DNA from: Candidatus Izemoplasmatales bacterium
GTDB lineage: Bacteria; Bacillota_I; Bacilli_A; Izemoplasmatales; Hujiaoplasmataceae
Reading direction: 5' to 3'
DNA length: 37,082 nucleotides
Assembly (NCBI GenBank): GCA_028691315.1
Contig: JAQUZN010000010.1
Span: forward strand, 1 to 37,082
Shown here: positions 3,323-32,952 of the stretch, in pieces
Layout of the letters: the number at the start of each line of letters is the position of its first letter
How positions within the stretch are numbered: position 1 is the first letter of the stretch
The notes under the pieces: generated by a model
Database searches by the model: none
Seen by the model: the letters and a program-made list of their open reading frames with translations, nothing else
What the model was told of the DNA's origin: nothing
Made by a program: the position numbers and the translations under genes

Positions 3323-4153
3323 ATGGCTATTATCAATTATAAACCACGTACACCTGGAACCCGTGGTATGACGAAGTTGGATTACAAAGATCTTACAACT
3401 TCCAAGCCAGAGAAATCGTTATTAACGCCTTTAAAATCAGAAGGCGGAAGAAATAATCAAGGTAAAATTACTGTTCGTCATCAAGCTGGTGGCGAAAAGA
3501 GAAAATATCGCGTTATTGACTTCAAAAGAAATAAAGATGGTATCAAAGGAAAAGTTGCAACAATTGAATACGATCCAAATCGTAGTGCAAATATTGCTTT
3601 AATCAACTATGTTGATGGAGAAAAACGTTACATTTTAGCTCCAAAAGGATTAACAGTTGGCATGTTTGTTGAATCTGGCGAGGCTGCAGATATCGTAGTT
3701 GGTAATTGTTTACCAATTAAATTGATCCCAGTAGGTACAGTAATTCACAACATCGAATTGTCTCCAGGAAAAGGCGGACAATTAATCCGTGCTGCTGGAA
3801 CAAGTGCTCAAATCTTAGGACGTGAAGAAAAATATGTTCTTGTCCGTTTAAAGTCAACTGAAGTTCGTCGTGTCCTTGGCGTATGCCGTGCAACAATTGG
3901 TGAAGTGGGTAATGAATTTCATGAATTAGTAAAAATCGGTAAAGCTGGAAGAAAACGTCACATGGGAGTGAAACCAACCGTTCGTGGGTCCGTTATGAAC
4001 CCAGTTGACCATCCTCATGGTGGTGGAGAAGGAAAGCAACCAGTTGGACATGCATCACCACTTACTCCTTGGGGTAAATGCGCTCGTGGTATGATTACAA
4101 GAAAACATAAATTACCTAGCGATAAACTAATCGTTAGAAGAAGAAATAAATAG
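3323..4153 (+). CDS. rplB: 50S ribosomal protein L2
   Basis: 276 residues, the usual size. L2 bridges the subunits and is needed for peptidyl transfer. The C-terminal signature around [15 protein letters not shown] (about residues 224-238) contains the conserved His associated with activity, followed by PLTPWGK. An OB-fold and an SH3-like domain precede it. The start follows GGGAGGAATACATA. Canonical position between rplW and rpsS. Confidence 0.98.
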
Positions 4154-4170
4154 GAAGGAGGAACTCGAGT

Positions 4171-4464
4171 ATGTCACGTTCAGTTAAAAAAGGTCCATTT
4201 TGTGATGATCACTTAATGAAAAAAGTGGTAGAAGCAAATAAATTAAATTCAAAGAAAGTCATTCAAACATGGTCAAGACGTTCAACAATATTTCCACAAT
4301 TTGTGGGACTAACCATCGGTGTTCATAACGGAAAAGAACACATTCCGGTTTATGTTACAGAGGATATGGTCGGTCACAAATTAGGAGAGTTCTCTCCAAC
4401 AAGAACATTCCGCGGTCATGCGGATAAAAAAGTCGTCAAGAAATCAGCAGGAGGAGGCAAATAG
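4171..4464 (+). CDS. rpsS: 30S ribosomal protein S19
   Basis: 97 residues. S19 pairs with S13 at the head of the 30S subunit near the A-site t[21 protein letters not shown] and [14 protein letters not shown] are family hallmarks. The start has a GGAAGGAGGAAC site. The stop codon directly abuts the rplV start codon with no intervening base, and the rplV ribosome-binding site GGAGGAGG forms part of the last codons here. Confidence 0.98.
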
Positions 4465-4800
4465 ATGGAAGCCAAAGCAAGAGTTAATACTGTCAGAATT
4501 GCCGCTAGAAAAGTCCGCCAAGTTGTTGATTTAATTAGAGGAAAAAAAGTTGGGGAAGCTTATGCAATCCTAAGAAATACACCAAGAGGTGCAACTGAGT
4601 GTGTTGAAAAATTGTTAAAATCTGTTGTTGCGAATGCAGAACACAATTATCAACTTGATCAAGATAAACTTTTCATCAAAGAAATTTATGTTGGTGAAGG
4701 AAAAACACTAAAAAGAATGCAACCTCGCTCACAAGGTAGAGGGTTTGCAATTTTGAAAAGAACCAGCCACATATACATTACCGTGGCTGAGAAGGAATAA
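4465..4800 (+). CDS. rplV: 50S ribosomal protein L22
   Basis: 111 residues. L22 has a globular surface domain and an extended hairpin ([19 protein letters not shown], about residues 84-102) that lines the nascent peptide tunnel and is a site of macrolide-resistance changes in other bacteria. No insertion or deletion is evident in the hairpin. The start abuts the rpsS stop, so it is translationally coupled. rpsC follows after 11 bases. Confidence 0.98.
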
Positions 4801-4811
4801 GGAGGGATTTT

Positions 4812-5459
4812 ATGGGACAAAAGGTCAGTCCAATCGGACAAAGAATCGGAATCATTTTTGATTGGGAATCCAGATGGTATGCAGACAAAAATGATGTAGC
4901 AGATTTACTTCTTGAAGACATTAAAATTCGCGACTTATTAAACGATCTATATAAAAATGCTAGCATTTCTAAAATAGAAATCGAAAGAAGCAAATCCCGT
5001 GTAATTATTACCGTTAATACAGCAAAACCTGGTATGGTTATCGGTCGTAACGGAGAAACAAAAAATGCTGTTATTGCAAAACTTAAAACTTTATCTAACA
5101 AAGAAGTATTCTTAAATGTTGTTGAAATTAAACGTGCAGAACTTGATGCAAAATTAGTCGCAGAAAGTATCGCAAAACAACTTGAAAACCGTGCTTCATT
5201 CCGAAGAGTACAAAAAGTCGCTATCCAAAGAGCATTAAAAGCTGGAGCTAAAGGGTGCAAAACTTTAATTTCCGGACGTCTTGCTGGCGCTGAAATGGCA
5301 CGTAGTGAAGGATATAATGAAGGAAATGTACCTCTACATACTTTAAGAGCGAATATTGACTATGCGCTTGCAGAAGCTAAAACTACTTATGGTAAACTTG
5401 GCGTAAAAGTATGGATTTACAAAGGGGAAATTCTGCCTTCAAAGAAGGAGGCTAAGTAA
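4812..5459 (+). CDS. rpsC: 30S ribosomal protein S3
   Basis: 215 residues, typical. S3 forms the mRNA entry tunnel with S4 and S5. It starts [14 protein letters not shown] and contains a type-II KH domain with the GxxG-type loop VIGRNGE (about residues 75-81). The ribosome-binding site AAGGAGGGA precedes ATG at 4812. It overlaps no neighbour; rplP begins two bases after the stop and takes its AAGGAGG from the last codons of rpsC. Confidence 0.98.
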
Positions 5460-5461
5460 TT

Positions 5462-5887
5462 ATGTTAATGCCTAAAAGAACAAAATATCGTCGTCCTCAC
5501 AGAGTGAGCTACGAAGGCCATGCAAAAGGCGGATCTGAAATCGCTTTTGGAGAATTTGGACTCGTTGCCCTTGAGGGTGCTTGGATTACAGCTCGCCAAA
5601 TTGAGGCAAGCCGTATTGCGATGACACGTTATATGAAACGTTCAGGACAAGTTTGGGTAAAAATATTCCCACATTTGGCTAAAACAAAGAAACCTATGGA
5701 AGTTCGTATGGGATCTGGTAAAGGTTCTGTTGAAGAATGGGTAGCAGTAGTTAAAGAAGGAGTAATTTTATTTGAACTTGCTGGAGTAACTGAAGAAGTT
5801 GCAAAAGAAGCTTTAAGATTAGCCTCTTACAAATTACCAATTAAAACAAAATTTGTTAAGAAAGTGAGTGGTGATTCAAATGCTTAA
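5462..5887 (+). CDS. rplP: 50S ribosomal protein L16
   Basis: 141 residues, beginning [14 protein letters not shown] as in most bacteria, which fixes the start. L16 organises the A-site tRNA region of the 50S subunit. The central basic segment [20 protein letters not shown] and the GSGKGSVE motif are conserved. The last eight bases overlap the start of rpmC, implying translational coupling. Confidence 0.98.
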
Positions 5888-6074
5888 TTTAAAAGATTTA
5901 CGTGCAATGGATGACACCACTATTTTGACTGAAATTGAAAACTTAAAGAAAGAACTATTTGACCTTCGTTTCAAACACGCAACTGGTCAATTAGAAAACA
6001 CTGCACGCTTATACAATGTTAGAAAGACTATCGCTCGTATGAAGACTATTCTTACTGAACGAGAAGGAAAGTAG
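5880..6074 (+). CDS. rpmC: 50S ribosomal protein L29
   Basis: 64 residues when started at ATG 5880 ([10 protein letters not shown]), matching the normal two-helix L29 that sits beside L23 at the tunnel exit. An in-frame GTG at 5868 would add four residues (VIQ) but has no better ribosome-binding site, so the ATG overlapping the rplP stop is preferred. The C-terminal half with [20 protein letters not shown] is the family signature. Confidence 0.95.
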
Positions 6075-6083
6075 GAGGATATT

Positions 6084-6344
6084 ATGGAAAATACAAATCA
6101 TAAAGTGTTTACCGGAACAGTTGTTTCAGATAAAAATGATAAAACAATTACCGTTCTTGTAACGACTTATAAAAAACATCCTTTATACAACAAACGAGTT
6201 ATTTCGTCTAAAAAATTTAGAGCTCACGATGAATTAAATACAGCGAAAACTGGCGATGTTGTTAAAATTATGGAATGCCGTCCATTATCAGCCACTAAGA
6301 GATTCCGTTTAGTTGAGATTTTACAACAAAACGGTAATCTATAA
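6084..6344 (+). CDS. rpsQ: 30S ribosomal protein S17
   Basis: 86 residues, a primary 16S rRNA-binding OB-fold protein. Typical features are [18 protein letters not shown] and [19 protein letters not shown], with the conserved [19 protein letters not shown] near the C-terminus. AGGAGG lies eight bases upstream. Standard location between rpmC and rplN. Confidence 0.98.
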
Positions 6345-6367
6345 TAGGCTAAAGAGGAGGATTAATC

Positions 6368-6736
6368 ATGATACAACAAGAAACCAGATTAAAGATTGCT
6401 GACAACTCAGGAGCCCGTGAAATACTAACCATTAAAGTTTTAGGCGGAACTAGACGCAGATACGCTAATATCGGTGATATTATCGTTGCGACAGTAAAAG
6501 CTGCAACTCCTGGTGGTTTAGTAAAAAAAGGTGAAGTAGTTAAAGCAGTCATCGTGAGAACCAAAAAAGGTGTTCGTCGTGCAGATGGATCGTTTATTAA
6601 ATTTGATGACAATGCAGCAGTTATTATTAAAGATGACAAGAGCCCAAAAGGAACTCGTATCTTTGGACCTGTTGCACGTGAGTTAAGAGAAGCTGAGTTT
6701 ACAAAAATTGTTTCTTTAGCTCCAGAAGTATTATAG
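6368..6736 (+). CDS. rplN: 50S ribosomal protein L14
   Basis: 122 residues, the invariant bacterial length. L14 forms intersubunit bridges with 16S rRNA and is the docking site of the silencing factor Rsf[19 protein letters not shown] and [20 protein letters not shown] are signatures. A GAGGAGG site precedes the start. First gene of what is the spc operon in Escherichia coli; no separate promoter is visible here, so read-through from the S10 promoter is likely. Confidence 0.98.
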
Positions 6737-6746
6737 GAGGCATATC

Positions 6747-7085
6747 ATGAAACTAAAAAAAGGCGATAAGGTCATTATAATATCTGGATCTGACAAAGGG
6801 AAACAAGGTACGATTTCTAAAATCATTAAGAAATCAGAACGTGTGTTACTTGACGGAGAAGGATTAAAAAAAGTTAAAAAACACTTAAAACCATCTCAAC
6901 AAAATCAAGATGGTGGAATTATGGAACTTCAAAAACCAATTCATGTATCAAATGTGATGGTTTTAGATCCAAAAACAAAAAAACCTACCAGAATTGGATA
7001 TAAAACAGTGACTAAAAAAGTTAAAAAAGTTGAAGTGACTGAAAAAGTTAGATACGCAAAAAAATCTGGCGAAGTATTAGAATAA
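6747..7085 (+). CDS. rplX: 50S ribosomal protein L24
   Basis: 112 residues. An N-terminal KOW motif ([20 protein letters not shown], residues 3-22) is followed by a Lys-rich body. L24 is an early assembly initiator that binds the 5' part of 23S rRNA. The ribosome-binding site TAGGAGG overlaps the rplN stop codon. Ten bases separate it from rplN. Confidence 0.98.
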
Positions 7086-7101
7086 TGAAGGGAGAAAATT
7101 G

Positions 7102-7644
7102 ATGAATCGTTTAAAAGAAAAATATAAAAGCGAGATTATGCCCGCTTTACAGGCTAAATTTAATTATTCTTCCGTCATGGAAAGTCCAAAAGTTAGTAAA
7201 ATTGTTATTAACATTGGAGTTGGAGATGCTGTAGCAAATCCAAAAGTATTAGATGATGCCGTAAGTGAGTTAGCTCAAATTACAGGACAAAAACCGCTTG
7301 TAACAAAAGCTAAAAAATCTATCGCAAGTTTTAAACTTCGTGAAGGAATGCCAATTGGTTGTAAGGTTACTTTACGTGGTGAGAGAATGTTTCAATTTTT
7401 AGATAAACTCATTACCATTGCATTACCACGTGTTCGCGACTTCCGTGGAATTAATCCAAAAGGATTTGACGGACGCGGGAATTATACGTTAGGTGTAAAA
7501 GAACAATTGATTTTCCCGGAAATCAATTACGATAAAGTCACAAAAATTCGCGGAATGGACATCGTTATAGTAACGACAGCTAACACTGATCAAGAAGCCT
7601 TAGAGCTTTTAAAACTATACGGAATGCCATTCAGAAAGAACTAA
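7102..7644 (+). CDS. rplE: 50S ribosomal protein L5
   Basis: 180 residues from ATG 7102 ([11 protein letters not shown]), the family start. A TTG codon directly before it is less likely because GGGAG is seven bases from it and ten from the ATG, while protein alignment favours the ATG. L5 binds 5S rRNA and contacts the P-site tRNA and S13. The motifs [20 protein letters not shown] and [21 protein letters not shown] are diagnostic. Confidence 0.97.
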
Positions 7645-7655
7645 GGAGGCGTACT

Positions 7656-7841
7656 ATGGCAAAAACATCGATGAAAGTCAGACAAAAACGTGGTTCAAAG
7701 TTTCCAGTTAGAGACTATACAAGATGCGAACGTTGCGGACGTCCTCATTCAGTTTATCGCAAATTTAAAATATGTCGTATTTGTTTCCGTGAGTTAGCTT
7801 ACAAAGGTCAAATACCTGGCGTTAGAAAAGCAAGTTGGTAA
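7656..7841 (+). CDS. rpsZ: 30S ribosomal protein S14, zinc-binding type Z
   Basis: 61 residues, the short C+ form of S14. Four cysteines form a zinc ribbon (CERC and CRIC spaced by 12 residues, within residues 24-43). Bacillota commonly keep this form in the spc operon and hold a longer zinc-free paralog elsewhere for zinc starvation; no such copy is in this window. The start has a TAAGGAGG site. A 52-base gap follows before rpsH. Confidence 0.98.
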
Positions 7842-7893
7842 TTAAAATGATGAAATTAGATTCCTATTTATTGAGGAAGGAGGCATTATTAAT

Positions 7894-8292
7894 ATGGTTA
7901 TGACAGATCCAATTGCCGATATGTTAACTCGTATTCGCAACGCAAACCAAATGAAAAAACAAACCGTTGATATTCCAGCTTCTAAATTAAAAACAGAAAT
8001 TTTGACTGTTTTAAAACAAGAGGGATTCATTACAGACTTCGTAGTCGTTAATGAAGGCGTCCAAGGGTTAATTAAAGTGACTTTAAAATATTTACAAAAT
8101 TCAGAACGTGCTGTTAGAGGTTTGAAGAAAATCTCTAAACCGGGTTTAAGAGTTTATGCTAAATCAGATGAACTACCAAGAGTGTTGAACGGTCTCGGAA
8201 TCGCGGTCGTATCTACCTCTAGAGGCATTATGACCGATAGAGAAGCTAGAAAACAACAAGTTGGTGGCGAAGTGATAGCATATGTTTGGTAA
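7894..8292 (+). CDS. rpsH: 30S ribosomal protein S8
   Basis: 132 residues beginning [18 protein letters not shown], the common Bacillota start. S8 is a primary 16S binder and in Escherichia coli represses the spc operon. The C-terminal ISTSRG-type signature appears as [15 protein letters not shown] (about residues 107-121). GAAGGAGG is upstream with a spacing of about ten bases, slightly long. Confidence 0.98.
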
Positions 8293-8342
8293 TCAGACAT
8301 ACTTAAAAATTAAAAGAAAAATTATGGAGGTGCAAGAAAACT

Positions 8343-8885
8343 ATGAGTCGTGTTGGTAGACAATTAATCAGCGTTCCTGCTGGTGTTACAGTAACTGTAG
8401 CTGCAAACAACTTAGTGACTGTAAAAGGACCAAAAGGAACATTAGAATTTACTTTCCACAATGATATGACAATTGATTCTGCTAATAATGAAATTTCTGT
8501 AACCCGACCAAGTGATTCTTTAAAGCACCGTGCCTTACATGGTACGACAAGAGCTTTATTGAATAACATGGTTAAAGGTGTAACCGAAGGTTATACAAAG
8601 ATCCTTGATATTAAAGGTGTTGGTTACCGTGCTTCATTAAAAGAAGGAAATATATTAGTTGTAAGTGTTGGATATTCAAATCCAGTAGAAGTTTTAATTC
8701 CAAATGGATTGACTGTAGATATTCCAGTGAACACAGAAGTTCACATTAAAGGTATTGATAAGCAAGCGGTAGGAGAATTTGCCGCAAATATTCGCAAGAT
8801 TAGACAACCAGAACCTTATCAAGGAAAAGGTATTAGATATCGTGGCGAATTTGTACGTCGTAAAGAAGGGAAAACTGCTAAGTAA
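8343..8885 (+). CDS. rplF: 50S ribosomal protein L6
   Basis: 180 residues with two repeats of the L6 fold. L6 sits beside the sarcin-ricin loop and factor-binding site. MSRVGRQLISVPAGV opens it; the C-terminal signature PEPYQGKGIRYRGE (about residues 157-170) is conserved. The start is preceded by TGGAGGTGC. A 50-base untranslated gap separates it from rpsH. Confidence 0.98.
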   Translation: MSRVGRQLISVPAGVTVTVAANNLVTVKGPKGTLEFTFHNDMTIDSANNEISVTRPSDSLKHRALHGTTRALLNNMVKGVTEGYTKILDIKGVGYRASLKEGNILVVSVGYSNPVEVLIPNGLTVDIPVNTEVHIKGIDKQAVGEFAANIRKIRQPEPYQGKGIRYRGEFVRRKEGKTAK

Positions 8886-8905
8886 TAGCAGACGGGTGAT
8901 AAACT

Positions 8906-9262
8906 ATGTTTAATCCAGTAAATAAAAATGCTCAACGTGTAAAACGTCACAGACGTATTAGAGCAAATATTAAAGGAACTACATTAAGACCTCGTTTAAA
9001 TGTTTTCCGTTCCAATACAGGCATTTATTGCCAACTTATTGATGATACACTAGGAATTACTCTAGTTTCCGCTTCTTCGATTGATATTAAAGAAGGACCT
9101 AAAGGAAACATTGAGGGAGCTGCTGCAGTTGGAACATTAATTGCCAAGAGAGCACTTGAAAAAGGTATTAAAGTTGTCGTATTCGATCGTGGCGGGTATA
9201 TTTACCACGGAAGAGTCAAAGCATTAGCCGAAGCTGCTAGAGCTGCAGGGCTAGAATTCTAA
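8906..9262 (+). CDS. rplR: 50S ribosomal protein L18
   Basis: 118 residues. With L5 and L25 it carries 5S rRNA into the large subunit. The basic N-terminus ([16 protein letters not shown]) binds [23 protein letters not shown] (about residues 93-112) is the family signature. The ribosome-binding site is unusual (ACGGGTGATAA), not the AGGAGG of most neighbours. Confidence 0.97.
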
Positions 9263-9278
9263 TGAAGGAGGGTGCCCA

Positions 9279-9830
9279 ATGCTAGAGAATAATGTCAAAG
9301 ATGGACAAGATAGAAGACCATCTCGCACATCTCGTGTGAAAAAAAGAGAAGAAAAGCTTTATGAAGAAAAAGTTGTCAATATTGGTAGGGTAACCAAAGT
9401 TGTCAAGGGTGGTAGACGTTTTAGTTTCTCTGCTATCGTTGTTGTTGGAGATCGAAAAGGAAATGTAGGATTTGGAACTGGTAAAGCTAGTGAAGTTCCA
9501 GATGCAATTCGTAAAGCGATTGAAGATGCAAAGAAAAACTTGATTTTCATTCCAAGAAATGGAACAACTATTCCTCATACAATCACCGGACGTTACGGTG
9601 CTGCAAAAGTATTTTTACGCCCAGCTGTTGAAGGAACCGGCGTAATCGCAGGTGGACCTGTTCGTGCCGTACTTGAACTTGCAGGCGTTGAAGATGTATT
9701 AAGCAAATCATTAGGATCAAATTCACCGATTAATATCGTTAGAGCAACGATGTCAGGGCTAAAACAATTAAGAAGCCTTGAAACAATTGCCGAAACTCGT
9801 GGTTTATCGGTTGAGGAGGTCTTGAAATAA
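9279..9830 (+). CDS. rpsE: 30S ribosomal protein S5
   Basis: 183 residues with an N-terminal double-stranded-RNA-binding-like domain ([19 protein letters not shown], the spectinomycin-related loop VKGGRR) and a C-terminal domain. S5 affects translational accuracy with S4. [21 protein letters not shown] is diagnostic. The extra acidic/basic N-terminal tail of about 25 residues is common in this phylum. The stop overlaps the rpmD start by one base (TAATG). Confidence 0.98.
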
Positions 9831-10012
9831 TGGCTAAAGTAAAAGTAACCTTGGTTAAAGGGTTAATGGGCCGCAAACCTAACCAAGTAAAAACAGTCAG
9901 AGCACTCGGACTTAATAAGAGAAATTCATCTGTTATTAGAGAAGAAAGCGATGCAATAAACGGAATGATTAATACCATCCGTCATCTAGTTAAAGTCGAA
10001 GAAGTGAAGTAG
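9830..10012 (+). CDS. rpmD: 50S ribosomal protein L30
   Basis: 60 residues, bacterial L30. The sequence [24 protein letters not shown] matches the conserved core. It starts on the last base of rpsE, using the GAGGAGG inside rpsE, so the two are coupled. rplO follows after 11 bases. No zinc motif is expected or present. Confidence 0.97.
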
Positions 10013-10023
10013 GAGGTGCCAAT

Positions 10024-10464
10024 ATGAAACTACATGAATTAAAACCAGTTGCAGGCGCTACTCATTCCAAAAAACGAGTTGGACGCGGAACTAGTAGTGG
10101 AACAGGTAAAACATCAGGGCGTGGACAAAAAGGCCAAAACTCACGTACCGGTGGTGGAACTCGTTTAGGTTTTGAAGGTGGACAAACACCTCTATTTAAA
10201 CGCTTACCAAAACGTGGATTTACAAACTTTTTCAGAACTGAATATGCTATTGTAAATTTACTTGAATTAAATTCTTATCCAAATGGAACAATTGTAACTC
10301 CTGAAGTTCTTTTATCAGACCGTAAGGTAAGTGCGCTTTTAAGTGGTATCAAGATTTTAGGAAAAGGTACACTTACTGTTAGTTTAACTGTTAAAGCTCA
10401 TAAATTCTCGGCTTCTGCGAAAAAAGCAATTGAAGACGCCGGCGGCAAGACAGAGGTGATTTAA
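10024..10464 (+). CDS. rplO: 50S ribosomal protein L15
   Basis: 146 residues. The Gly/Arg-rich N-terminal extension (about residues 14-56: [20 protein letters not shown] and beyond) threads through 23S rRNA; the globular C-terminal domain ends [27 protein letters not shown] precedes the start. It is followed by secY after a single base, as in most bacteria. Confidence 0.98.
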
Positions 10465-10465
10465 T

Positions 10466-11836
10466 ATGGAGACTCTAAAAAAGATATTTAAGAATAAGGA
10501 ATTAGTTAAAAAATTACTATTTACTTTACTTGTCTTTTTAGTATTCAAATTATTCACTTATGTTACAATGCCACTTATTAATACGGCTTCACTTACAGAT
10601 TTATTCTCAAATAGTGGATTCTTAGGAATTATGAACTCCATTTCAGGTAATGCACTTGGGAACTATTCTGTTATTGCTTTAGGAATTAGCCCATACATTA
10701 CGGCATCAATTGTCATCCAAATGTTACAAATGGATATTATCCCTGTTTTAAAAGAGTGGTCAGAAGAAGGCGAAGTTGGCCGTCAAAAAATAAGCCGTTT
10801 AACAAGATATGTCGCAATCGTACTTGCATTTGTACAAGCACTTGCAATGACATTTGCTTTCAACAGTACACAAACATCCATATTTACGTTTGGAGTTTCA
10901 GACTGGGCAACAGCAGGTGGACGTAATTTATGGTTCTTAGTTTATTTCTATATCGCAGTCGTGTTAACAGCAGGAACTGCATTTACGATTTGGCTAGCAG
11001 ATCAAATTACATTAAAAGGAGTTGGAAACGGTTCTTCAATGTTAATCGTTGCCGGAATCATCATTTCCTTTCCTGGAACAATTGTTTCTTTATTCCAATA
11101 TTATATTAAAGATGCTGCAGGTGCATTATCAACAGATATATCGCCCGTTCAAGGAGCATTTGCTGGTTATGTATTATTTGGTGTTAGTATTTTAATGTTT
11201 GTCATCGTGCTGATTGGGGTAACCTATATGCAAGATGCGCAACGAAAAATACCTATCCAATATGCAAATAGACCGGCAAGTTCAAAATTTGCTGGAAAAT
11301 CGGAATCTAACATTCCGATTAAGATTAATACTGCTGGTGTTATTCCGGTTGTATTCTCATCCATCATCTTATCATTACCGAATACAATTTTCAGTTATAT
11401 TTCTTGGGGATCTAGCTCATTAGCTACATCAGCACAAAACTGGTTCGGACAAATCTTCTCGTATCAACAACCGATTGGATTTGCTTTATATATGCTTTTA
11501 ATTGTTGTGTTTACTTTCTTCTATGCGTTCATCTTAATTAAACCTGAACAATTATCTGAAAACCTTCAAAAACAAAATGCTTATATTCCAGGAGTTCGTC
11601 CAGGAAGTGAAACAGAAGCTTATATTACCAAAACATTGTTTAGAGTAACAGTAATTGGAGCACTTTACTTACTACTTATTGCCAGCCTTCCAATTATTAC
11701 CTCGGCTATCTTGGGACAAAGCTACGCTCAAATTGGTGGTACTTCCTTATTGATTATCGTTGGTGTTGCTTTAGAAACGGCAAAACAAATTGATACAGAC
11801 ACGCAGGAAAAGGCATACGCGGGATTCATGAGATAG
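10466..11836 (+). CDS. secY: Protein translocase channel subunit SecY
   Basis: 456 residues with about ten hydrophobic segments. SecY is the protein-conducting channel through which SecA pushes unfolded exported proteins and SRP delivers membrane proteins. The plug-region sequence GNALGNYSVIALGISPYITASI (two pieces of it: GNYSVIALGI, SPYITASI) and the cytoplasmic loop with DAQRKIPIQYA are signatures. Extra hydrophilic stretches between central segments (about residues 125-150 and 275-330) look normal for Mollicute-like and Bacillota SecY. The start uses GAGGTGA in rplO. Confidence 0.98.
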   Translation: METLKKIFKNKELVKKLLFTLLVFLVFKLFTYVTMPLINTASLTDLFSNSGFLGIMNSISGNALGNYSVIALGISPYITASIVIQMLQMDIIPVLKEWSEEGEVGRQKISRLTRYVAIVLAFVQALAMTFAFNSTQTSIFTFGVSDWATAGGRNLWFLVYFYIAVVLTAGTAFTIWLADQITLKGVGNGSSMLIVAGIIISFPGTIVSLFQYYIKDAAGALSTDISPVQGAFAGYVLFGVSILMFVIVLIGVTYMQDAQRKIPIQYANRPASSKFAGKSESNIPIKINTAGVIPVVFSSIILSLPNTIFSYISWGSSSLATSAQNWFGQIFSYQQPIGFALYMLLIVVFTFFYAFILIKPEQLSENLQKQNAYIPGVRPGSETEAYITKTLFRVTVIGALYLLLIASLPIITSAILGQSYAQIGGTSLLIIVGVALETAKQIDTDTQEKAYAGFMR

Positions 11837-11840
11837 TATC

Positions 11841-12488
11841 ATGATAAATTTATTGATTATGGGGAAGCCAGGAGCTGGCAAAGGTACCCAAGCAGCAAGA
11901 TTACTAGATTATTATAAACTTACCCATATTTCAACTGGAGATATTTACCGTGAAGAAATGGCGAAAGACTCTCCTATTGGAATACTCGCCAAGAAATATA
12001 TTGGGCAAGGTGAGCTGGTCCCTGATAATGTTACTAACGACATCGTTAGAAACGTACTGAATCAAAAGGATTATCCTAATGGCTTTATGCTAGATGGATA
12101 TCCAAGAACAAAAACACAAGCAATTGCTCTCGATAAGATGCTCGAAGACTTGAATATCCACTTAACTGCAGTTATTAATGTAGATGTGGAGGATAAAGTA
12201 TTATTAGTTCGTATGGCTGGAAGAAGGGTTTGTTCTAATTGTGGAGCAACCTATCATATCGATTTTCATCCATCTGCCAAAGAAGGTATTTGTGATGTTT
12301 GTGGATCGAAGCTAATACAACGAGAAGACGATTTGGAAGAATCAGTTTTGAACAGGTTAAGAATCTATAACGAAAAGACCAAACCGCTTTTAGACTATTA
12401 TAAGAAAAAAGGCTTACTACTCATCGTTAATGGTGAAGACCCAACAGCAACTGTGTTCCAAAATATTGTCAATAAACTAGGTGAATAA
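11841..12488 (+). CDS. adk: Adenylate kinase, zinc-lid type
   Basis: 215 residues; interconverts ATP plus AMP with two ADP. P-loop GKPGAGKGT (about residues 8-16), AMP-site STGDIYR and DGYPRT. The lid has a CxxC...CxxC set (C at about 130, 133, 150 and 153: CSNC and CDVC), the structural zinc form common in Gram-positive bacteria. Four bases after secY, with no strong ribosome-binding site of its own, so coupling to secY is likely. Confidence 0.98.
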
Positions 12489-12490
12489 AT

Positions 12491-13240
12491 GTGGTAACAA
12501 TCAAATCTCAAAGAGAAATCGAATTAATGCGGATTGCAGGAAGAATTGTTGGGCTCGCTCATCAAGAAGTAGCAAAACACGTCGTACCTGGTATATCTAC
12601 GTATGAACTCGATCAAATCGTTGAAAAAGTGATTTATGACAACAATGCAATCCCTAGTTTTAAAAACTATAACGGATTTCCTTCTGCCGCATGCATATCT
12701 ATTAACAAGGAAGTCGTACATGGTATTCCTTCAAAAAAAAGAATTTTACAAGATGGAGATATCGTATCAATCGATATTGGTGCAATTTATAAAGGGTATC
12801 ATGGAGATTCTGCTTGGACATATGCATGTGGAGAGATTTCGTTAGCTGCAAAAAAATTACTCGAGGGTACAGAAGCTAGCCTTTTCAAAGGTCTAGAAAA
12901 AGCAGCGCCTGGTAATCGCTTAACGGACATTTCTCATGCAATTCAAGAATTTGCGGAAAGCTTAGGGTTTTCGGTTGTAAGAGAATTTGTTGGACATGGT
13001 GTAGGGAAACAACTACACGAAGATCCTCAAATTCCAAATTTCGGACTTGCTGGTAGAGGCATTACTTTGAGAAAAGGAATGACCCTAGCAATCGAGCCAA
13101 TGATTAATGCTGGAAGAAAAGAAGTAAAAGTGTTACCTGATGGATGGACTACCATAACTCAAGACGGATCTTTAAGTGCACACTTTGAGCACTCTATCTT
13201 GATTACAGAAAATGGTTATGAAATCCTGACAAAGGTTTAA
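12491..13240 (+). CDS. map: Methionine aminopeptidase type I
   Basis: 249 residues; removes the initiator Met from new proteins. The pita-bread fold ligands are visible: two Asp in [17 protein letters not shown], His in [12 protein letters not shown], Glu in AIEPMI and Glu in AHFEHSI. The start is GTG 12491, two bases after adk; [20 protein letters not shown] matches the family N-terminus. An ATG overlapping it (12489) is out of frame and stops at once. Weak ribosome-binding site GGTGA. Confidence 0.97.
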
Positions 13241-13254
13241 AAAGGAGTGATTCA

Positions 13255-13476
13255 ATGGCAAAAAAAGATGATGTAATCGAAATGGTTGGAACGGTTGTCG
13301 AAGTCTTGCCAAACGCCCAATTTATAATCGAGTTAGAAATTGGACATCGCATTCTCGGTCACGTTTCTGGTAAAATCCGCATGCATTACATACGCATTTT
13401 ACCAGGCGATAAAGTCAAAGTTGAACTGTCAACATACGATCTAACACGTGGACGAATAACGTATCGAATGAATTAA
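13255..13476 (+). CDS. infA: Translation initiation factor IF-1
   Basis: 73 residues, a single OB-fold (S1-like) that occupies the A site during initiation. The family core [30 protein letters not shown] and [18 protein letters not shown] is intact. The Bacillus ybzG (KOW) gene between map and infA is absent. AAAGGAGTGA lies upstream. The infA-rpmJ-rpsM order is standard. Confidence 0.98.
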
Positions 13477-13505
13477 ATTATGAAAGATTTTAGGGAGGTA
13501 ATGGT

Positions 13506-13622
13506 ATGAAAATTAGACCATCTGTAAAAAAAATCTGTGACAAATGTAAAATCATCAAACGCAATGGCAATGTAATGGTCATATGCGAAAATCCAAAACA
13601 TAAACAAAGACAAGGAAAATAG
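13506..13622 (+). CDS. rpmJ: 50S ribosomal protein L36
   Basis: 38 codons: starts [15 protein letters not shown] and ends [10 protein letters not shown]. This is the zinc-containing form, with ligands C11, C14, C27 and a His near residue 32. The start is ATG 13506 after TAGGGAGGTAATGGT; an ATG at 13501 is out of frame and stops after two codons. The gene fills the gap between infA and rpsM and is easy to miss because of its length. Confidence 0.96.
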
Positions 13623-13631
13623 GAGGTAACA

Positions 13632-13997
13632 ATGGCACGTATCGCAGGAGTAGATATCCCTAGAGAAAAGCGCGTTGTAATTTCTTTAACTTATGTTTAT
13701 GGTATCGGTAAGCCACTATCTGAAAAGATTTTAGCCGCTGCAGGTATATCAGAAGACAAAAGAGTTAAAGATTTAACAGACGATGAAGTAGTAAGAATTC
13801 GTCAAGAAGTTGCAAAATATAGAGTTGAAGGCGATCTTCGTAGAGAAGTTGCATTAAACATTAAACGTTTAATGGAAATTGGCTCATACAGAGGAATTCG
13901 TCATCGCAAAGGTTTACCAACACGTGGTCAAAATACGCGTAACAACGCAAGAACACGTAAAGGTCCAAGAAAAACCGTTGCAAATAAGAAGAAATAG
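13632..13997 (+). CDS. rpsM: 30S ribosomal protein S13
   Basis: 121 residues. S13 is in the 30S head, contacting S19, the P-site tRNA and L5. [21 protein letters not shown] begins it (first 20 shown as [20 protein letters not shown]) and the C-terminal [18 protein letters not shown] block is the signature. TAGGAGGTAAC precedes the start. First gene of the alpha section of the operon. Confidence 0.98.
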
Positions 13998-14013
13998 GAG
14001 GGATTAATATAAT

Positions 14014-14400
14014 ATGGCACGTACAGTAGTTAAGAAACGTCGTGTGAAAAAGAATATTCCTTCTGGAGTAGCTCATATTCATTCGACTTTTAACAACACA
14101 ATAATTACGATCACAGATGGACAAGGCAATGCTATTGCTTGGTCTTCATCTGGAGCAATTGGATATAAAGGTAGCCGTAAATCGACACCTTTCGCAGCTG
14201 GTCTTGCTAGTGAAGCAGCTGCCAAAGCAGCAATGGAAAATGGCGTTCAAAGAGTTGAAGTTTCTGTTAAGGGACCAGGTCCTGGTAGAGAAGCAGCAAT
14301 TCGTAGTTTACAAGTTGCAGGCCTAGAGATTACTGCAATTAAAGACGTAACACCAGTTCCACATAACGGATGTCGTCCACCAAAACGACCACGCGGATAG
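14014..14400 (+). CDS. rpsK: 30S ribosomal protein S11
   Basis: 128 residues; lies on the 30S platform next to the E-site mRNA. The C-terminal signature [18 protein letters not shown] is intact (about residues 111-128), as is [14 protein letters not shown]. The ribosome-binding site TAGGAGGGA is about 11 bases from ATG 14014, longer than usual, but no alternative start fits the family. Confidence 0.98.
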
Positions 14401-14410
14401 GAGGCTTTTT

Positions 14411-15361
14411 ATGAAGGACTTGAAATTCGAAAAACCAAAAACCATTACTGAAGAAATTGATGACTCCTACGGAAGATTTGTCATCACACCACTTGACCGT
14501 GGATTCGGTATCACGATTGGAAATTCTTTGAGACGAGTTTTATTGTCTTCTCTTCCTGGAGCAGCAATTGTCAATGTGACAATTGATGGCGTTGAACATG
14601 AGTTCACCGCTATTGAAAATGTTGTTGAAGATGTGACTTCAATTGTATTAAATTTAAAAGGTGTTGTCTTAACAATTGACAATCCTAACCCAAATATAGA
14701 AAAACGCTTAGAAGTGATTGTAGATGGTCCTCAAGACGTTCATGCATCTGACATTATTGCAGATGATGAAGTTGAAGTGATTAATCCTGATCATTATATT
14801 TGCCACGTAAACAAAGGCAAACGTTTCCGTATGGTATTAATTGCCAGAAAAGGAAATGGTTACGCTAACGCTGACAAGAATGCACAATATGACAATATGG
14901 TCGGTGTCATTCCAATTGATAGTTTATATACACCCGTTGTTCGTGCAAACTATTCTGTCGACAAGACAAGGGTTGATGAATCAGCTGATTATGATAAACT
15001 AACAGTTGAAGTTTGGACCAACGGATCAGTTGGACCAAAAGAAGCAATTGGTATGGCTTCTAAAATGTTAATCGATCATTTATATTCCATCGTTGAACTT
15101 TCTAACCGCGCAATGGCAGAAGACTTCATGATTGAAAGAAAATCCGAGGAAACAACTAGAAACCTTGAAAAACCTATCGAAGATTTAGATCTTTCGGTAA
15201 GAAGCTATAACTGCTTAAAAAGAGCAGGTATTCACACTTTAGGTGAACTCATCGAAAAAACCGAAGAGGACATGATGAAAGTTCGTAACTTAGGTAAAAA
15301 ATCATTAAAAGAAGTGAAGCAAAAGCTTGAAGAATTAAGTTTAAGCTTAGCTAAGCACTAA
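14411..15361 (+). CDS. rpoA: RNA polymerase alpha subunit
   Basis: 316 residues. The N-terminal domain (about 1-230) dimerises and binds beta and beta'; [22 protein letters not shown] (core [14 protein letters not shown]) is conserved. A short linker leads to the C-terminal domain (about 248-312) with the helix-hairpin-helix surface that binds UP elements and activators: [16 protein letters not shown] and [15 protein letters not shown]. The start is ATG 14411 after TAGGAGG. rplQ follows after 17 bases. Confidence 0.98.
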
Positions 15362-30243: not shown

Positions 30244-30272
30244 ATAACCAAAAAATGGTTGTCTATTTTTTT
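30239..30272 (+). terminator. Terminator of the flavodoxin gene
   Basis: TAGATAACCA (30241-30250) / TGGTTGTCTA (30256-30265), one G-T pair, followed by T7. The stem begins on the stop codon itself. Confidence 0.8.
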
Positions 30273-30305
30273 CAACCATCAGTTGCTTTTCTTCTTTTCA
30301 ATAAA

Positions 30306-30314
30306 TGCTATAAT
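30306..30314 (+). promoter_or_regulatory. Extended -10 promoter of the XRE-repeat operon
   Basis: TGCTATAAT (30306-30314). A TTGCTT at 30283-30288 is 20 bases away, too far for a standard spacer. The start of the regulator is 36 bases downstream. Confidence 0.55.
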
Positions 30315-30349
30315 GAAAGTGTCTTAAATAAATGAAAGAAGGTGGTACA

Positions 30350-30883
30350 TTGCTAGATCTAATTCGAATTGGCAATAAGTTATCCGATTTGAGACAACAA
30401 AAAGGACACACTCAAGAATCACTTGCCGAGTTATTACTTGTAACTCATCAAGCTGTATCCAAATGGGAAAGAGGCTTAAGTCTGCCTTCTGTGGATAATC
30501 TTTGTTACCTAATGGAGTTCTATCTTGTCAGCATTGAAGAAATCCTTTGCCTTGATAGTCCGAAAACAAGCGACTCAATTGACGAGTTATTTAAGGAACA
30601 TGACAGGCATTTTATTGTTCATGAAACCGTTCAAAAACGGATTGAGGGTGTGACCTTAGAAGACATTTTGCATAAGTTATCAAACGAAGAACGGATGTAC
30701 GCTTTGTATTTGTTAGTGAGTATAAAATATAAAATCGACGAAAAACTCTGGCCAAGATTATCTGTCGACGAAAGATATTACATTATTCACCAGCACAAAG
30801 AAGGAAACATACCATTTGATTTTGATTTATTAATGCATTTGATGTCAAAAAATGAAATTAAAAAATATAAAGGAGAAATATAA
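30350..30883 (+). CDS. XRE-family transcriptional regulator
   Basis: 177 residues from TTG 30350, which follows AAGGTGG at four-base spacing; ATG 30332 is in frame but lies before this site. N-terminal Cro/C1-type helix-turn-helix (about 5-65): KLSDLRQQKGHTQESLAELL and THQAVSKWERGLSLPSVDNL. The remaining 110 residues are helical and have no recognised ligand domain. The stop is followed after one base by the gene for a repeat protein with which it must be co-transcribed; that protein may be its regulator or target. Its own operator is not evident. Confidence 0.9.
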   Translation: MLDLIRIGNKLSDLRQQKGHTQESLAELLLVTHQAVSKWERGLSLPSVDNLCYLMEFYLVSIEEILCLDSPKTSDSIDELFKEHDRHFIVHETVQKRIEGVTLEDILHKLSNEERMYALYLLVSIKYKIDEKLWPRLSVDERYYIIHQHKEGNIPFDFDLLMHLMSKNEIKKYKGEI

Positions 30884-30884
30884 G

Positions 30885-31241
30885 ATGAAACTAGTGAGAA
30901 TGTTACCATTTTTAGAAAATGCTGAACTTAAAGAATTAGTTGACTCTATTTTGAATGATCAATTAGATAAAGATAGTATTTCTATTATCGAGGTGGTCCC
31001 TTTTTTGGAAGACGAGGAAATCAACAGATTATTTAATGGCGCTATTGAAGGAAAAATAGACGTAAATCCTGTTGCTTTCTTACCTTTTCTAGAAAATGAA
31101 GCAATGAATGAACTCGTTGATAGAATTCAATCAGGCGAAATTACAAATGTAAAAATAGAGAGCATTATTCCTTTTCTTGAAAAAGAACAAATTCAAAAGA
31201 TTTTTAGAGATACATTAAATTCAATGAAAAAGAAAGAATAA
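30885..31241 (+). CDS. Small protein with four PFLE-containing repeats
   Basis: 118 residues from ATG 30885, with AAAGGAG eight bases upstream. The sequence is four tandem units of 28-31 residues, each with PFLE at residues 8, 39, 67 and 96, followed by a helix with a similar hydrophobic pattern (ENAELKELVDSIL, EDEEINRLFNGAI, ENEAMNELVDRIQ, EKEQIQKIFRDTL). It is acidic, has no signal or membrane segment, and looks like a helical-repeat protein-binding scaffold. I do not recognise the family. It follows the XRE gene by one base, so a role in the same pathway is likely. Confidence 0.75.
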   Translation: MKLVRMLPFLENAELKELVDSILNDQLDKDSISIIEVVPFLEDEEINRLFNGAIEGKIDVNPVAFLPFLENEAMNELVDRIQSGEITNVKIESIIPFLEKEQIQKIFRDTLNSMKKKE

Positions 31242-31249
31242 TTTTATAT

Positions 31250-31286
31250 AAAAAAGGACTTCAGAATAAAACTGAAGTCCTTTTTT
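31250..31286. terminator. Bidirectional terminator between the XRE operon and the metal transporter
   Basis: Stem GGACTTCAG (31256-31264) / CTGAAGTCC (31272-31280), flanked by A6 on the left and T6 on the right. It can end transcripts arriving from both sides: the repeat-protein gene (plus) and the permease gene (minus), whose stop is at 31288. Confidence 0.88.
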
Positions 31287-31287
31287 A

Positions 31288-32169
31288 TTAGTTATTTTCA
31301 CCTAAAGGCTTTTGTTTAGCGATTTGCATTTTAAGTCTGATTTTACGTATTGCAGATACAATTAATAAGATAATAACATTTACACTGACAATAGCAGCAC
31401 CACTTGGAATTAAGAAGGTGTATGACATCCAAAGTCCAAAGAATACACTGAGTTCAGAAAATACAATTGCAATCGCGGATGTTGACTTAAAACTCCAACC
31501 AACCTTCATGGCGGCTGCAACAGGGATAATCATCATTGATGAAATTAGTAAAACACCTACCGATTCAAGTAAAACACTTACGACAACACTTAACATGACC
31601 ATAAATAAGAATTGAAACAGATTGACATTAACGCCTAAGAACTTCGCATTTGTTTCTTCAAAACTAACTGCAAGGATCTGTTTGCCAAAGACAATAAGCA
31701 AAACTGCGACGACAATGGCAATAATGAGAATCAAAACAACGTAATAATTAGTTATCGTCAAGATTGAACCGAATAAATAGTTATATAACGATCCGGTTTT
31801 CTTTGATAATGAGAAGAAAATTGCACTTAATGCTGCGCCAAGAGAGATTACGATTACCATCGAAATTTCTTTATAGTTGGTATAAGATCTTCTAAAGAGT
31901 TCGACTAAAAGTCCTCCAACAACAGAAAAGAATAATCCAAGATACAAAGGTCTTTCAAAAAATATCGAAATACCTAAAGTTGATAAATACAAACTGACAG
32001 AAATACCTACCAATGAAAAGTGCCCCAAAGTATCCGCGATAAACGACAATTTTCGAACCACAACGATTGAGCCAATTACTGGAGCTAATACTCCTAGAAT
32101 AATTCCAGCGAATAATGCTCTGAGCATAAAATCTTGTTGAAACAAATCAGTAAAGAACGAAAGAAACAT
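31288..32169 (-). CDS. Metal ABC transporter permease (ZnuB/AdcB type)
   Basis: 293 residues with seven or eight hydrophobic segments, matching the ABC-3 family of zinc, manganese or iron permeases (ZnuB, MntB). The N-terminal VVRKLSFIADTLGHFSLVGI and the conserved VGVLLISSMMIIPVAAAMKV are the main signatures. The start ATG 32169 overlaps the ATPase stop by one base (TAATG) and GGAGGTGA lies upstream. No substrate-binding protein or Zur/MntR-type regulator gene is adjacent, so metal specificity cannot be assigned. Confidence 0.9.
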   Translation of the reverse strand: MFLSFFTDLFQQDFMLRALFAGIILGVLAPVIGSIVVVRKLSFIADTLGHFSLVGISVSLYLSTLGISIFFERPLYLGLFFSVVGGLLVELFRRSYTNYKEISMVIVISLGAALSAIFFSLSKKTGSLYNYLFGSILTITNYYVVLILIIAIVVAVLLIVFGKQILAVSFEETNAKFLGVNVNLFQFLFMVMLSVVVSVLLESVGVLLISSMMIIPVAAAMKVGWSFKSTSAIAIVFSELSVFFGLWMSYTFLIPSGAAIVSVNVIILLIVSAIRKIRLKMQIAKQKPLGENN

Positions 32170-32840
32170 TAGATGTTCACCTCCGCAATTTTACAACGAT
32201 CTTTTGTTAAAAAAGTAAATGTCATATCATTATTCATTGTCAAAAGATGTGAATAGTTTAAAAATTCAATTGTATCATTATGAGTAACAATAATCACGGT
32301 AACCCCTTGTAAATTTAACTGGTTCACTGCTTTATAAAAGTAATCAGTACTTAATTTATCGATAGAAGCGGTTGGTTCATCAAGGATTAATAATTTAGGA
32401 ACATTTAACATACTTCTTACGATAAATGCCCTTTGTAATTCTCCCCCTGATAAATTATTAATATTTTGATTTAGAAGGTCTAAAATGCCCATTTGGTCTA
32501 ATGCTCTTAACCGATGACTTTGCTTGATAACTTTTAAACTCGAAATATTTAACAGTTCATTTACAGTAATTGGAAATTCGTAATTAAACTCTTCAAATTT
32601 TTGACTTACATATCCTAAGCTTGTCCAATCTTTGAAGTTATTGATATCTTCGTGATTATAAAAAATCATCCCGTTTTTAACAGGATTCATCCCTAATAAA
32701 CACTTTAAGAAAGTGGATTTACCAGAACCATTTTTTCCCCTAATGACTAAATAATCTCCACTAGAAAGACTAAAAGATAAATTACTTATAACTGATTTAT
32801 GTCCATAAGCAAATGATAGGTTGTGAACGTCAATTTGCAT
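32169..32840 (-). CDS. Metal ABC transporter ATP-binding protein (ZnuC/AdcC type)
   Basis: 223 residues from ATG 32840, chosen because AAGGTGAT precedes it; an upstream in-frame start has no ribosome-binding site. Walker A RGKNGSGKST (about 34-43), Q-loop YVSQKFEEF, signature LSGGELQR (about 131-138), Walker B LLILDEPTASID and VTHN. Powers the permease encoded on the same transcript, with which it overlaps by one base. Typical of ATPases of zinc/manganese importers. Confidence 0.9.
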   Translation of the reverse strand: MQIDVHNLSFAYGHKSVISNLSFSLSSGDYLVIRGKNGSGKSTFLKCLLGMNPVKNGMIFYNHEDINNFKDWTSLGYVSQKFEEFNYEFPITVNELLNISSLKVIKQSHRLRALDQMGILDLLNQNINNLSGGELQRAFIVRSMLNVPKLLILDEPTASIDKLSTDYFYKAVNQLNLQGVTVIIVTHNDTIEFLNYSHLLTMNNDMTFTFLTKDRCKIAEVNI

Positions 32841-32863
32841 ATAATCACCTTGCCTTTTTATAT

Positions 32864-32872
32864 ATTGTATCA
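32864..32872 (-). promoter_or_regulatory. Promoter of the metal transporter operon
   Basis: Minus-strand TGATACAAT (extended -10; plus coordinates 32864-32872) about 24 bases upstream of the ATPase start. The -35 is weak (TTTATC). No clear Zur, MntR or AdcR palindrome is seen nearby. Confidence 0.5.
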
Positions 32873-32952
32873 TAATTAAATGTATTGATAAAATATTATA
32901 TATAAAAATCTCTCATTTTATGAGATAATAGAAGGTAAAGTAGGTGACTTAA

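What the first reader, a model, noticed from the sequence alone, without database searches (positions are those of the whole stretch)
30350..31241. XRE regulator coupled to a four-repeat PFLE protein
The two genes are separated by one base. The second encodes only four similar 28-31 residue helical units, each opened by PFLE. It is an unrecognised repeat protein and could be a ligand or partner that controls the regulator, or a protein-sequestering scaffold.
Basis: partly seen in the sequence, partly recalled or inferred. Interest (0 to 1): 0.5.

Follow-up and report, generated by a model that had tools for sequence, protein, structure and literature searches.

The report
Two-gene split transcription regulator
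Two neighbouring bacterial genes appear to be the DNA-binding half and the helical-repeat half of one gene switch that other bacteria make as a single protein; the repeat family is not in the catalogues searched, and the switch has a recognisable DNA site that makes it testable.

Summary
An XRE regulator (30350-30883) is followed after one base by REP (30885-31241, 118 aa), four PFLE units (self-alignment 100; best of 1000 shuffles 50). Pfam, NCBIfam, PADLOC, PHROGs and PDB sequence searches give no significant match for REP.

REP is not an unrelated partner. The C-terminal half of the XRE family carries degenerate copies of the same repeat (hhalign 50.4; best of 200 shuffled controls 18.3). 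In other Bacillota HTH and repeats are one protein (tree: 32 fused, 63 split, separated at 97/90). Of 67 distinct split REP ORFs, 63 have XRE directly upstream. AlphaFold2 predicts REP as helix pairs (pLDDT 91).

Promoters of split XREs share a CAAC-N5-GTTG-type palindrome (54 of 63 loose; 51 in tight form and usual place), 22-24 bp before a -10-like hexamer. Similar sites precede exporter genes in some relatives (8 of 11 assigned), but other XREs share the site type.

Best reading: an HTH/solenoid regulator split over two genes; REP completes the effector domain in trans; the complex controls its own promoter and perhaps exporters in relatives. Complex, ligand and sign of regulation are inferred. 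New variant of a known kind.

The parts
30272..30286 (+). Putative operator TCAACCATCAGTTGC (CAAC-N5-GTTG palindrome)
   Evidence: Loose form in 54 of 63 upstream regions, strict CAACN5GTTG in 45 of 63, tight form at the usual place in 51 of 63; only strict match in the window, where chance expects 0.42
30306..30314 (+). Extended -10 element TGC-TATAAT, 22 bp after the operator
   Evidence: Sequence; spacing 22-24 bp in 52 measured sites. The consensus scanner did not list this promoter
30350..30883 (+). XRE-family regulator, 177 aa, TTG start (alternative ATG at 30332)
   Evidence: Pfam HTH_3 E 5.2e-12; start supported by relatives
30386..30544 (+). HTH DNA-binding domain of XRE
   Evidence: HTH_3 over residues 19-71 of the 183-aa ORF; superposes on XRE structures at Z about 12
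30578..30880 (+). C-terminal half of XRE: 3-4 degenerate copies of the REP repeat
   Evidence: hhalign of family profiles, probability 94-95, E 1e-7 to 2e-8; helix pairs in the model
30870..30875 (+). AAGGAG, likely ribosome-binding site for REP inside the end of XRE
   Evidence: Sequence
30885..31241 (+). REP, 118-aa four-repeat protein
30888..30980 (+). REP unit 1 (31 aa)
30981..31064 (+). REP unit 2 (28 aa)
31065..31154 (+). REP unit 3 (30 aa)
31155..31238 (+). REP unit 4 (28 aa)
31248..31288 (+). Terminator hairpin closing the two-gene unit
   Evidence: 17-pair stem with T tract; 1 found, 0.5 expected in shuffles

Best explanation
XRE and REP are the two halves of one HTH/alpha-solenoid transcription regulator whose gene is split. 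XRE binds a GCAAC-N5-GTTGC-type palindrome just upstream of the -35 region of its own promoter. Its C-terminal stub of degenerate repeats is extended in trans by the four canonical repeats of REP, which form the effector-sensing surface; made from the same short transcription unit, REP sets whether the complex activates or represses. Shown here: shared repeat ancestry at family level, gene order compatible with the fused proteins, conserved linkage, conserved operator position. Inferred: physical complex, sensing by REP, sign of regulation (activation judged somewhat likelier because the site sits at about -43 with fixed spacing), and exporters as targets in relatives.
For: REP profile matches the XRE C-terminal half, score 50.4 against at most 18.3 in 200 column-shuffled controls; against the HTH half 9.9, reversed 15.4. 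The repeat-unit HMM exceeds 8 bits in 21 of 22 fused XREs and 0 of 620 shuffles. Order is compatible: full XRE aligns to columns 10-203 and REP best to 233-353 of the fused profile, though REP at 208-309 scores nearly as well. XRE lies directly upstream in 63 of 67 split REP ORFs, 40 of 63 overlapping or within 5 bp by longest ORF. The XRE partner ranges from HTH only (4) through about 150 aa (20) to 172 aa or more (39), so the break lies at different places along the repeat region. Models: REP pLDDT 91.4; read-through fusion pLDDT 93.1 with 7-residue helices A in both halves. Operator: loose form in 54 of 63 regions against a shuffle mean of 2.15 and 28 of 297 real windows. Operator plus -10 composite in 44 of 57 genomes chosen as REP carriers (in G004, G011 and G323 the only hit is not an XRE promoter) against 3 of 28 REP-negative relatives. 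Fused XRE promoters: strict site in 16 of 32, loose in 21 of 32.
Against: No direct evidence of a complex. The fusion model has pTM 0.49 and junction pLDDT about 70, so how the halves pack is not established. XRE C-terminal columns alone match the fused profile weakly (E 0.009, probability 4%), the window XRE C-terminal half alone has an unremarkable self-repeat score (34; 33 of 1000 shuffles as high), and only 6 of 31 XREs score above 5 bits with the unit HMM. In four loci XRE is HTH only (72-76 aa), so REP would have to dock another way there. Nine of 63 upstream regions lack the site, among them L152, L153, L154 and L156, four of the five members of one branch. The operator type is not specific to REP-linked XREs: 5 of 25 other XRE ORFs examined also carry it, and one REP-negative genome has it near an XRE relative. 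No exporter target was found in the window's own genome.
Confidence: 0.6

Rival explanations
1. REP is an antagonist: it binds the XRE C-terminal repeats and titrates or disassembles the DNA-binding dimer, as SinI does with SinR (recalled), rather than being a functional half of the regulator.
For: Two-gene unit, often with overlapping or adjacent ORFs; homologous repeats could hetero-associate; some XREs are HTH only.
Against: In fused homologues the repeats sit permanently on the HTH protein, which does not suit a titrating antagonist.
Confidence: 0.22
2. REP has an independent role, for example as a protein or RNA scaffold, and is only co-transcribed with XRE.
For: Generic solenoid; the best structural neighbours are Pumilio/HEAT-like at Z 6.3 or less. 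A second REP-like ORF without its own XRE lies in L149.
Against: Sequence homology to the XRE C-terminal half and fused forms; linkage kept in 63 of 67.
Confidence: 0.1
3. One gene broken by an assembly error, or joined by programmed frameshifting.
For: One-base gap and a frame change in the window.
Against: Distance and relative frame vary among relatives, from overlaps to a 162-bp gap; REP has its own start codon and a likely ribosome-binding site; 63 distinct loci are split.
Confidence: 0.02
4. Toxin-antitoxin pair with XRE as antitoxin and REP as toxin.
For: XRE plus small neighbouring protein is a common layout (recalled); HTH-only, sub-cutoff matches to antitoxin models.
Against: REP matches no family above cutoff in Pfam or NCBIfam and none in PADLOC at E <= 0.1, and it is homologous to part of XRE itself.
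Confidence: 0.02

Closest known systems
Fused XRE-repeat regulators of Bacillota (Paenibacillus, Cohnella, Gottfriedia, Sporosarcina, Clostridia; repeat part without a Pfam match above cutoff in the five scanned)
   Same: HTH followed by degenerate, then canonical LAPFL/PFLE repeats; CAAC-N5-GTTG site in 16 (strict) or 21 (loose) of 32 upstream regions
   Different: One protein of 218-581 aa; here the repeats are divided between two genes
RRNPPA peptide-pheromone receptors (PlcR, ComR, PrgX, Rgg, NprR)
   Same: N-terminal HTH followed by a helix-pair repeat superhelix; nearest whole-chain Foldseek matches of the fusion model (best E 1.4e-3)
   Different: Repeat is 28-31 aa, not TPR of about 34 aa (PMC9765709, passages read); superposition poor (TM about 0.2, listed rmsd 17-26 A); REP, not a pheromone gene, follows XRE
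SinR/SinI (B. subtilis)
   Same: XRE regulator with a small partner protein; SinR HTH superposes
   Different: SinI is not a multi-repeat solenoid and is not known fused to SinR (recalled, not tested)
Lambda-type CI autoactivation
   Same: XRE/Cro-CI-type HTH protein with an operator abutting the -35 region, centre about -43 (the CI position is recalled)
   Different: Activation not shown here; lambda CI has no alpha-solenoid (recalled)

Membership tests
XRE / HTH_3 regulators | HTH_3 domain above the curated cutoff | tested here: met
   46.1 bits against cutoff 23
XRE / HTH_3 regulators | Binds a palindromic operator | tested here: inconclusive
   Conserved palindrome upstream; binding not testable here
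RRNPPA receptors | N-terminal HTH (transcriptional members) | tested here: met
RRNPPA receptors | 5-9 TPR motifs of about 34 aa, or TPR-like fold | tested here: inconclusive
   28-31 aa units; no Pfam TPR match to XRE or REP listed at E <= 1; Foldseek lists PlcR/ComR but superposition is poor
RRNPPA receptors | Pheromone gene immediately downstream of the receptor gene (Bacillales systems; other layouts exist) | tested here: not met
   XRE is followed by REP, a terminator, then convergent ABC genes; no search for small secreted peptides elsewhere
RRNPPA receptors | Peptide bound in the concave surface | not testable with these tools
   -
Fused XRE-repeat regulators | Same repeat unit (REP unit profile found in fused proteins) | tested here: met
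   21 of 22 fused proteins above 8 bits, 0 of 620 shuffles
Fused XRE-repeat regulators | HTH and repeats in one polypeptide | tested here: not met
   Stop codon and new start between them; the HTH tree separates fused (32) from split (63) at 97/90
Toxin-antitoxin | Partner matches a toxin family | tested here: not met
   No match for REP above cutoff in Pfam or NCBIfam, none in PADLOC at E <= 0.1

The most novel reading that the evidence does not exclude
A one-component regulator that has become a two-protein receptor. DNA-binding half and sensor half share one repeat lineage, the break lies at different places along the solenoid in different lineages, and reversible completion of the solenoid is the switch, controlling multidrug-type ABC/MFS exporters across many Bacilli through a common operator.
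Probability: 0.35. Interest if true: 0.7.

Novelty: new variant of a known kind. Interest (0 to 1): 0.5.

Why it matters
HTH/alpha-solenoid regulators in Bacillota are known mainly through peptide receptors (my knowledge). Here is a second repeat family attached to XRE domains, absent from the catalogues searched. Its repeats, split or fused, are in 64 of 395 genomes sampled across one class, with an operator readable from sequence. That gives a direct route to the regulon and to the signal, and a natural series for studying how a receptor is divided into two genes.

Tried and rejected
Known family for REP: rejected (the best solved-structure profile hit is a designed helix bundle at E 0.0011). 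Assigning REP to Pumilio/HEAT from structure: rejected, Z at most 6.3 and no Foldseek E <= 1e-3. Conserved neighbour gene as a clue: none shared across the whole set, only within groups. Plasmid or phage carriage: no match in those collections at E <= 1e-3. Frameshift or broken gene: rejected (varied gaps). Literature: the searches 'XRE'+'LAPFL', 'helix-turn-helix'+'APFL repeat', 'XRE family'+'HEAT-like repeat'+'transcriptional regulator'+'Firmicutes', 'Izemoplasma'+'XRE', and 'XRE family'+'ABC transporter'+'autoregulat'+'GTTGC' gave 0 papers each; a broader search held 57 papers, 10 listed, seen as a listing only, as was the RRNPP listing. Of PMC9765709 I read passages.

Regulon in the window's own genome. 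The composite search gave its own promoter at 0 mismatches, none at 1, four at 2 and 23 at 3 (28 in all, against 15 for the reversed pattern); those with 2-3 mismatches were not examined, apart from one that one search shows inside an ORF. The two other exact CAACN5GTTGCTT matches lie inside ORFs. The relaxed search adds the promoter of the genome's fused XRE paralogue, the C127 core hit and one unexamined site on C158.

Alignments A3 (55 rows) and A4 (36 rows) put XRE C-terminal repeats onto REP columns, or REP rows onto XRE columns. I chose A5 (27 XRE and 5 REP rows beside the fusion) after checking that rows fell where intended, so that model is not blind to my expectation.

Rows left out: A1 holds 28 REP proteins. 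Near-duplicates of the same loci and L037, longer REPs (L011, L016, L023, L026, L029), truncated or partnerless ones (L014, L054) and the broken copy (L008) were not used. A2 holds 31 XREs; L011, L016, L037 and L054 were not used. The 57 handles were picked by me from REP-positive genomes; not every REP-positive genome was included. The 28 were REP-negative genomes whose names were printed, not a random draw. In the upstream set (63 regions) the entry for L020 does not hold the composite site that its genome shows close before its XRE (G079 C47), so it was probably taken before a different HTH ORF.

Full report
Observation. XRE (30350-30883) and REP (30885-31241) are separated by one base. XRE carries an HTH_3 domain (E 5.2e-12); REP has no match above any curated cutoff. 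REP's four units are real: self-alignment 100, best of 1000 shuffles 50. AlphaFold2 with 28 aligned sequences gives eight helices, two per unit, mean pLDDT 91.4, pTM 0.81. P at 8, 39, 67 and 96, and F at 97, are invariant in the 28.

Conservation and linkage. A REP match is found in 31 of 101 genomes, own genome included, and REP-type repeats, split or fused, in 64 of 395 genomes sampled from the class. Among 67 distinct split REP ORFs, 63 have an HTH gene directly upstream on the same strand. The four others are two contig ends (L014, L161), a second copy behind another pair (L149) and a 65-aa fragment (L169). By longest ORF, 40 of the 63 overlap or lie within 5 bp; 15 have gaps over 60 bp. 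Four loci of this analysis (L008, L137, L158, L170) gave no REP ORF; L008 and L137 are the same place, with two in-frame stops.

Same repeat in the partner. hhalign of the REP profile against the XRE profile gives probability 94.3 and E 1e-7 over 78 columns. On the C-terminal columns alone it scores 50.4, against a mean of 10.6 and a maximum of 18.3 in 200 column shuffles, 9.9 for the HTH half and 15.4 reversed. MAFFT also confused the two when given many rows. Against this, the window XRE C-terminal half alone shows only a weak self-repeat (33 of 1000 shuffles as high), and most single XREs score low with the unit HMM (6 of 31 above 5 bits). The case therefore rests on the family profile.

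Fused forms. In 22 loci from the genome-contig scan the HTH and the repeats are one protein, and further ones came from the class search. The unit HMM exceeds 8 bits in 21 of 22 and in 0 of 620 shuffled controls. Order is compatible: full XRE aligns to columns 10-203 of a 14-protein fused profile (E 1.2e-33, largely from the HTH) and REP best to 233-353 (E 7e-19), but REP at 208-309 scores almost as well (E 1.4e-17) and the XRE C-terminal part alone is weak (E 0.009). A tree of 95 HTH domains (69 columns, 33 of 92 inner branches open) separates 32 fused from 63 split at 97/90. Within the split group XRE may be HTH only (4), about 150 aa (20) or 172 aa and more (39). So the split form may have one origin, and the break lies at different places along the repeat region.

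Model of both halves. A read-through fusion (XRE-K-REP) folds with pLDDT 93.1 but pTM 0.49, and pLDDT falls to about 70 at the junction. XRE residues 77-174 form helix pairs, three of them with the same 7-residue helix A as REP. A continuous solenoid is compatible with this but not proven. Foldseek finds PlcR, ComR, PrgX and Rgg as nearest whole-chain neighbours (best E 1.4e-3), with TM about 0.2; VIA-align places the HTH on XRE structures at Z about 12.

Operator. 54 of 63 upstream regions carry the loose form [GTA]CAA[CTA]-N5-[GAT]TTG[CAT]. Of these, 51 have the tight form [GT]CAA[CT]-N5-[GA]TTGC 60-85 bp before the HTH start; L029 and L055 have other forms and L155 lies far upstream. Controls for the loose form: shuffles mean 2.15, maximum 8; real windows from the same loci 28 of 297. 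Strict CAACN5GTTG: 45 of 63, shuffle mean 0.09, real windows 10 of 297. Nine regions lack it: L026, L028, L039, L138, L152, L153, L154, L156 and L020, whose region was probably taken before a different HTH ORF. In 52 measured sites the first base of a -10-like hexamer lies 22 (20 sites), 23 (31) or 24 (1) bases after the operator; the hexamer rule was loose and chose the candidate nearest 22 within 18-27, which narrows the spread. The -35 region therefore directly follows the operator, whose centre is about -43. That position, recalled for class II activators such as lambda CI, makes activation somewhat likelier than repression; this is inference. The window site is 30272-30286 with -10 at 30309-30314.

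Possible targets. The composite operator plus -10 occurs in 44 of 57 REP-positive genomes (reversed-pattern hits: 4) and in 3 of 28 REP-negative relatives (reversed hits: 3). Most hits in the former are the XRE promoters themselves; in G004, G011 and G323 the only hit is not. Only 6 of the 28 have a close XRE at E <= 1e-8, so the contrast partly reflects XRE presence. The bare motif is not specific: of the extra sites fetched, 26 hits were marked inside ORFs (one of these ORFs, in L253, probably spurious). Among extra sites outside XRE promoters, 11 are intergenic, have a -10-like hexamer near the usual spacing (one at 21, the others with a candidate at 23) and a gene close downstream. Eight of the 11 are exporter-type: six half-size ABC transporters of 596-609 aa (two in G039, one each in G035, G056, G098, G262), one MFS (G039) and one ABC ATPase whose best NCBIfam match is drrA, below its cutoff (G200). 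Two are small membrane-like proteins (G045, G294) and one a 958-aa possible surface protein (G029), labelled by eye. If three intergenic sites without that hexamer are added (G017, a MacB-like ABC protein; G041, a CPBP-like protein; G010, an 81-aa ORF; labels by eye), it is 9 of 14. Not counted: five composite hits sharing a CAACNNNTTGTTGCAT core (G000, G004, G010, G011, G028), which I read as a conserved ABC-ATPase coding stretch without examining them; unassigned sites (G039 C5:24979, G223, G323, G045 C1, the last not fetched); a contig end (G076); one before another XRE (G115); a second site before the XRE of G262. No exporter-type site was found in the window's genome. Caution: 5 of 25 other XRE ORFs examined also have a CAAC-N5-GTTG site upstream, so exporter sites may belong to paralogues. 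G056 is the cleanest case, with a single XRE of this type at E <= 1e-8.

Verdict. Ordinary in kind (XRE regulator with a helical effector domain), unusual in being divided over two genes, with a repeat family absent from the catalogues searched and a readable operator. Interaction, ligand and sign of regulation remain to be tested.

Noticed in passing
L139, L140, L145, L146, L147, L148, L150, L151 (REP proteins of 183-247 aa): REP proteins paired with XREs of 72-159 aa carry an N-terminal extension resembling MILKK..DGKE.Y..L..EEA...FTDE before the repeats; no Pfam match above cutoff in the three tested (L140, L146, L148).
   Followed up: partly
L149:2059-2520: A second REP-like ORF with no XRE of its own lies behind an XRE-REP pair.
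   Followed up: no
L012, L013, L016-L020, L024, L031, L038, upstream of XRE: In ten distinct loci a divergently transcribed gene of one cluster sits before XRE-REP; the one tested (L038) is a 612-aa Sulfatase-family protein, LTA-synthase-like by recall.
   Followed up: partly
L253:2038 (G115 C6): An operator plus -10 composite precedes a second XRE gene with a cysteine-containing C-terminal stretch, cut by the contig end.
   Followed up: no
L002 (G000 C232): The window's genome also has a fused XRE-repeat protein of 218 aa with GCAATGAATCATTGC in its promoter; the genome bin is 7.9% contaminated.
   Followed up: partly
L008 = L137 (G011 C24): A degraded REP copy with two in-frame stops.
   Followed up: no
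   Followed up: no
window 3323-15361: Ribosomal proteins L2 and L5, SecY and RNA polymerase alpha are among the genes scanned: this part of the window is ordinary chromosome.
   Followed up: partly
window 31288-32873 (-): Convergent ABC-3 family permease and ABC ATPase behind the terminator; not part of the unit.
   Followed up: no
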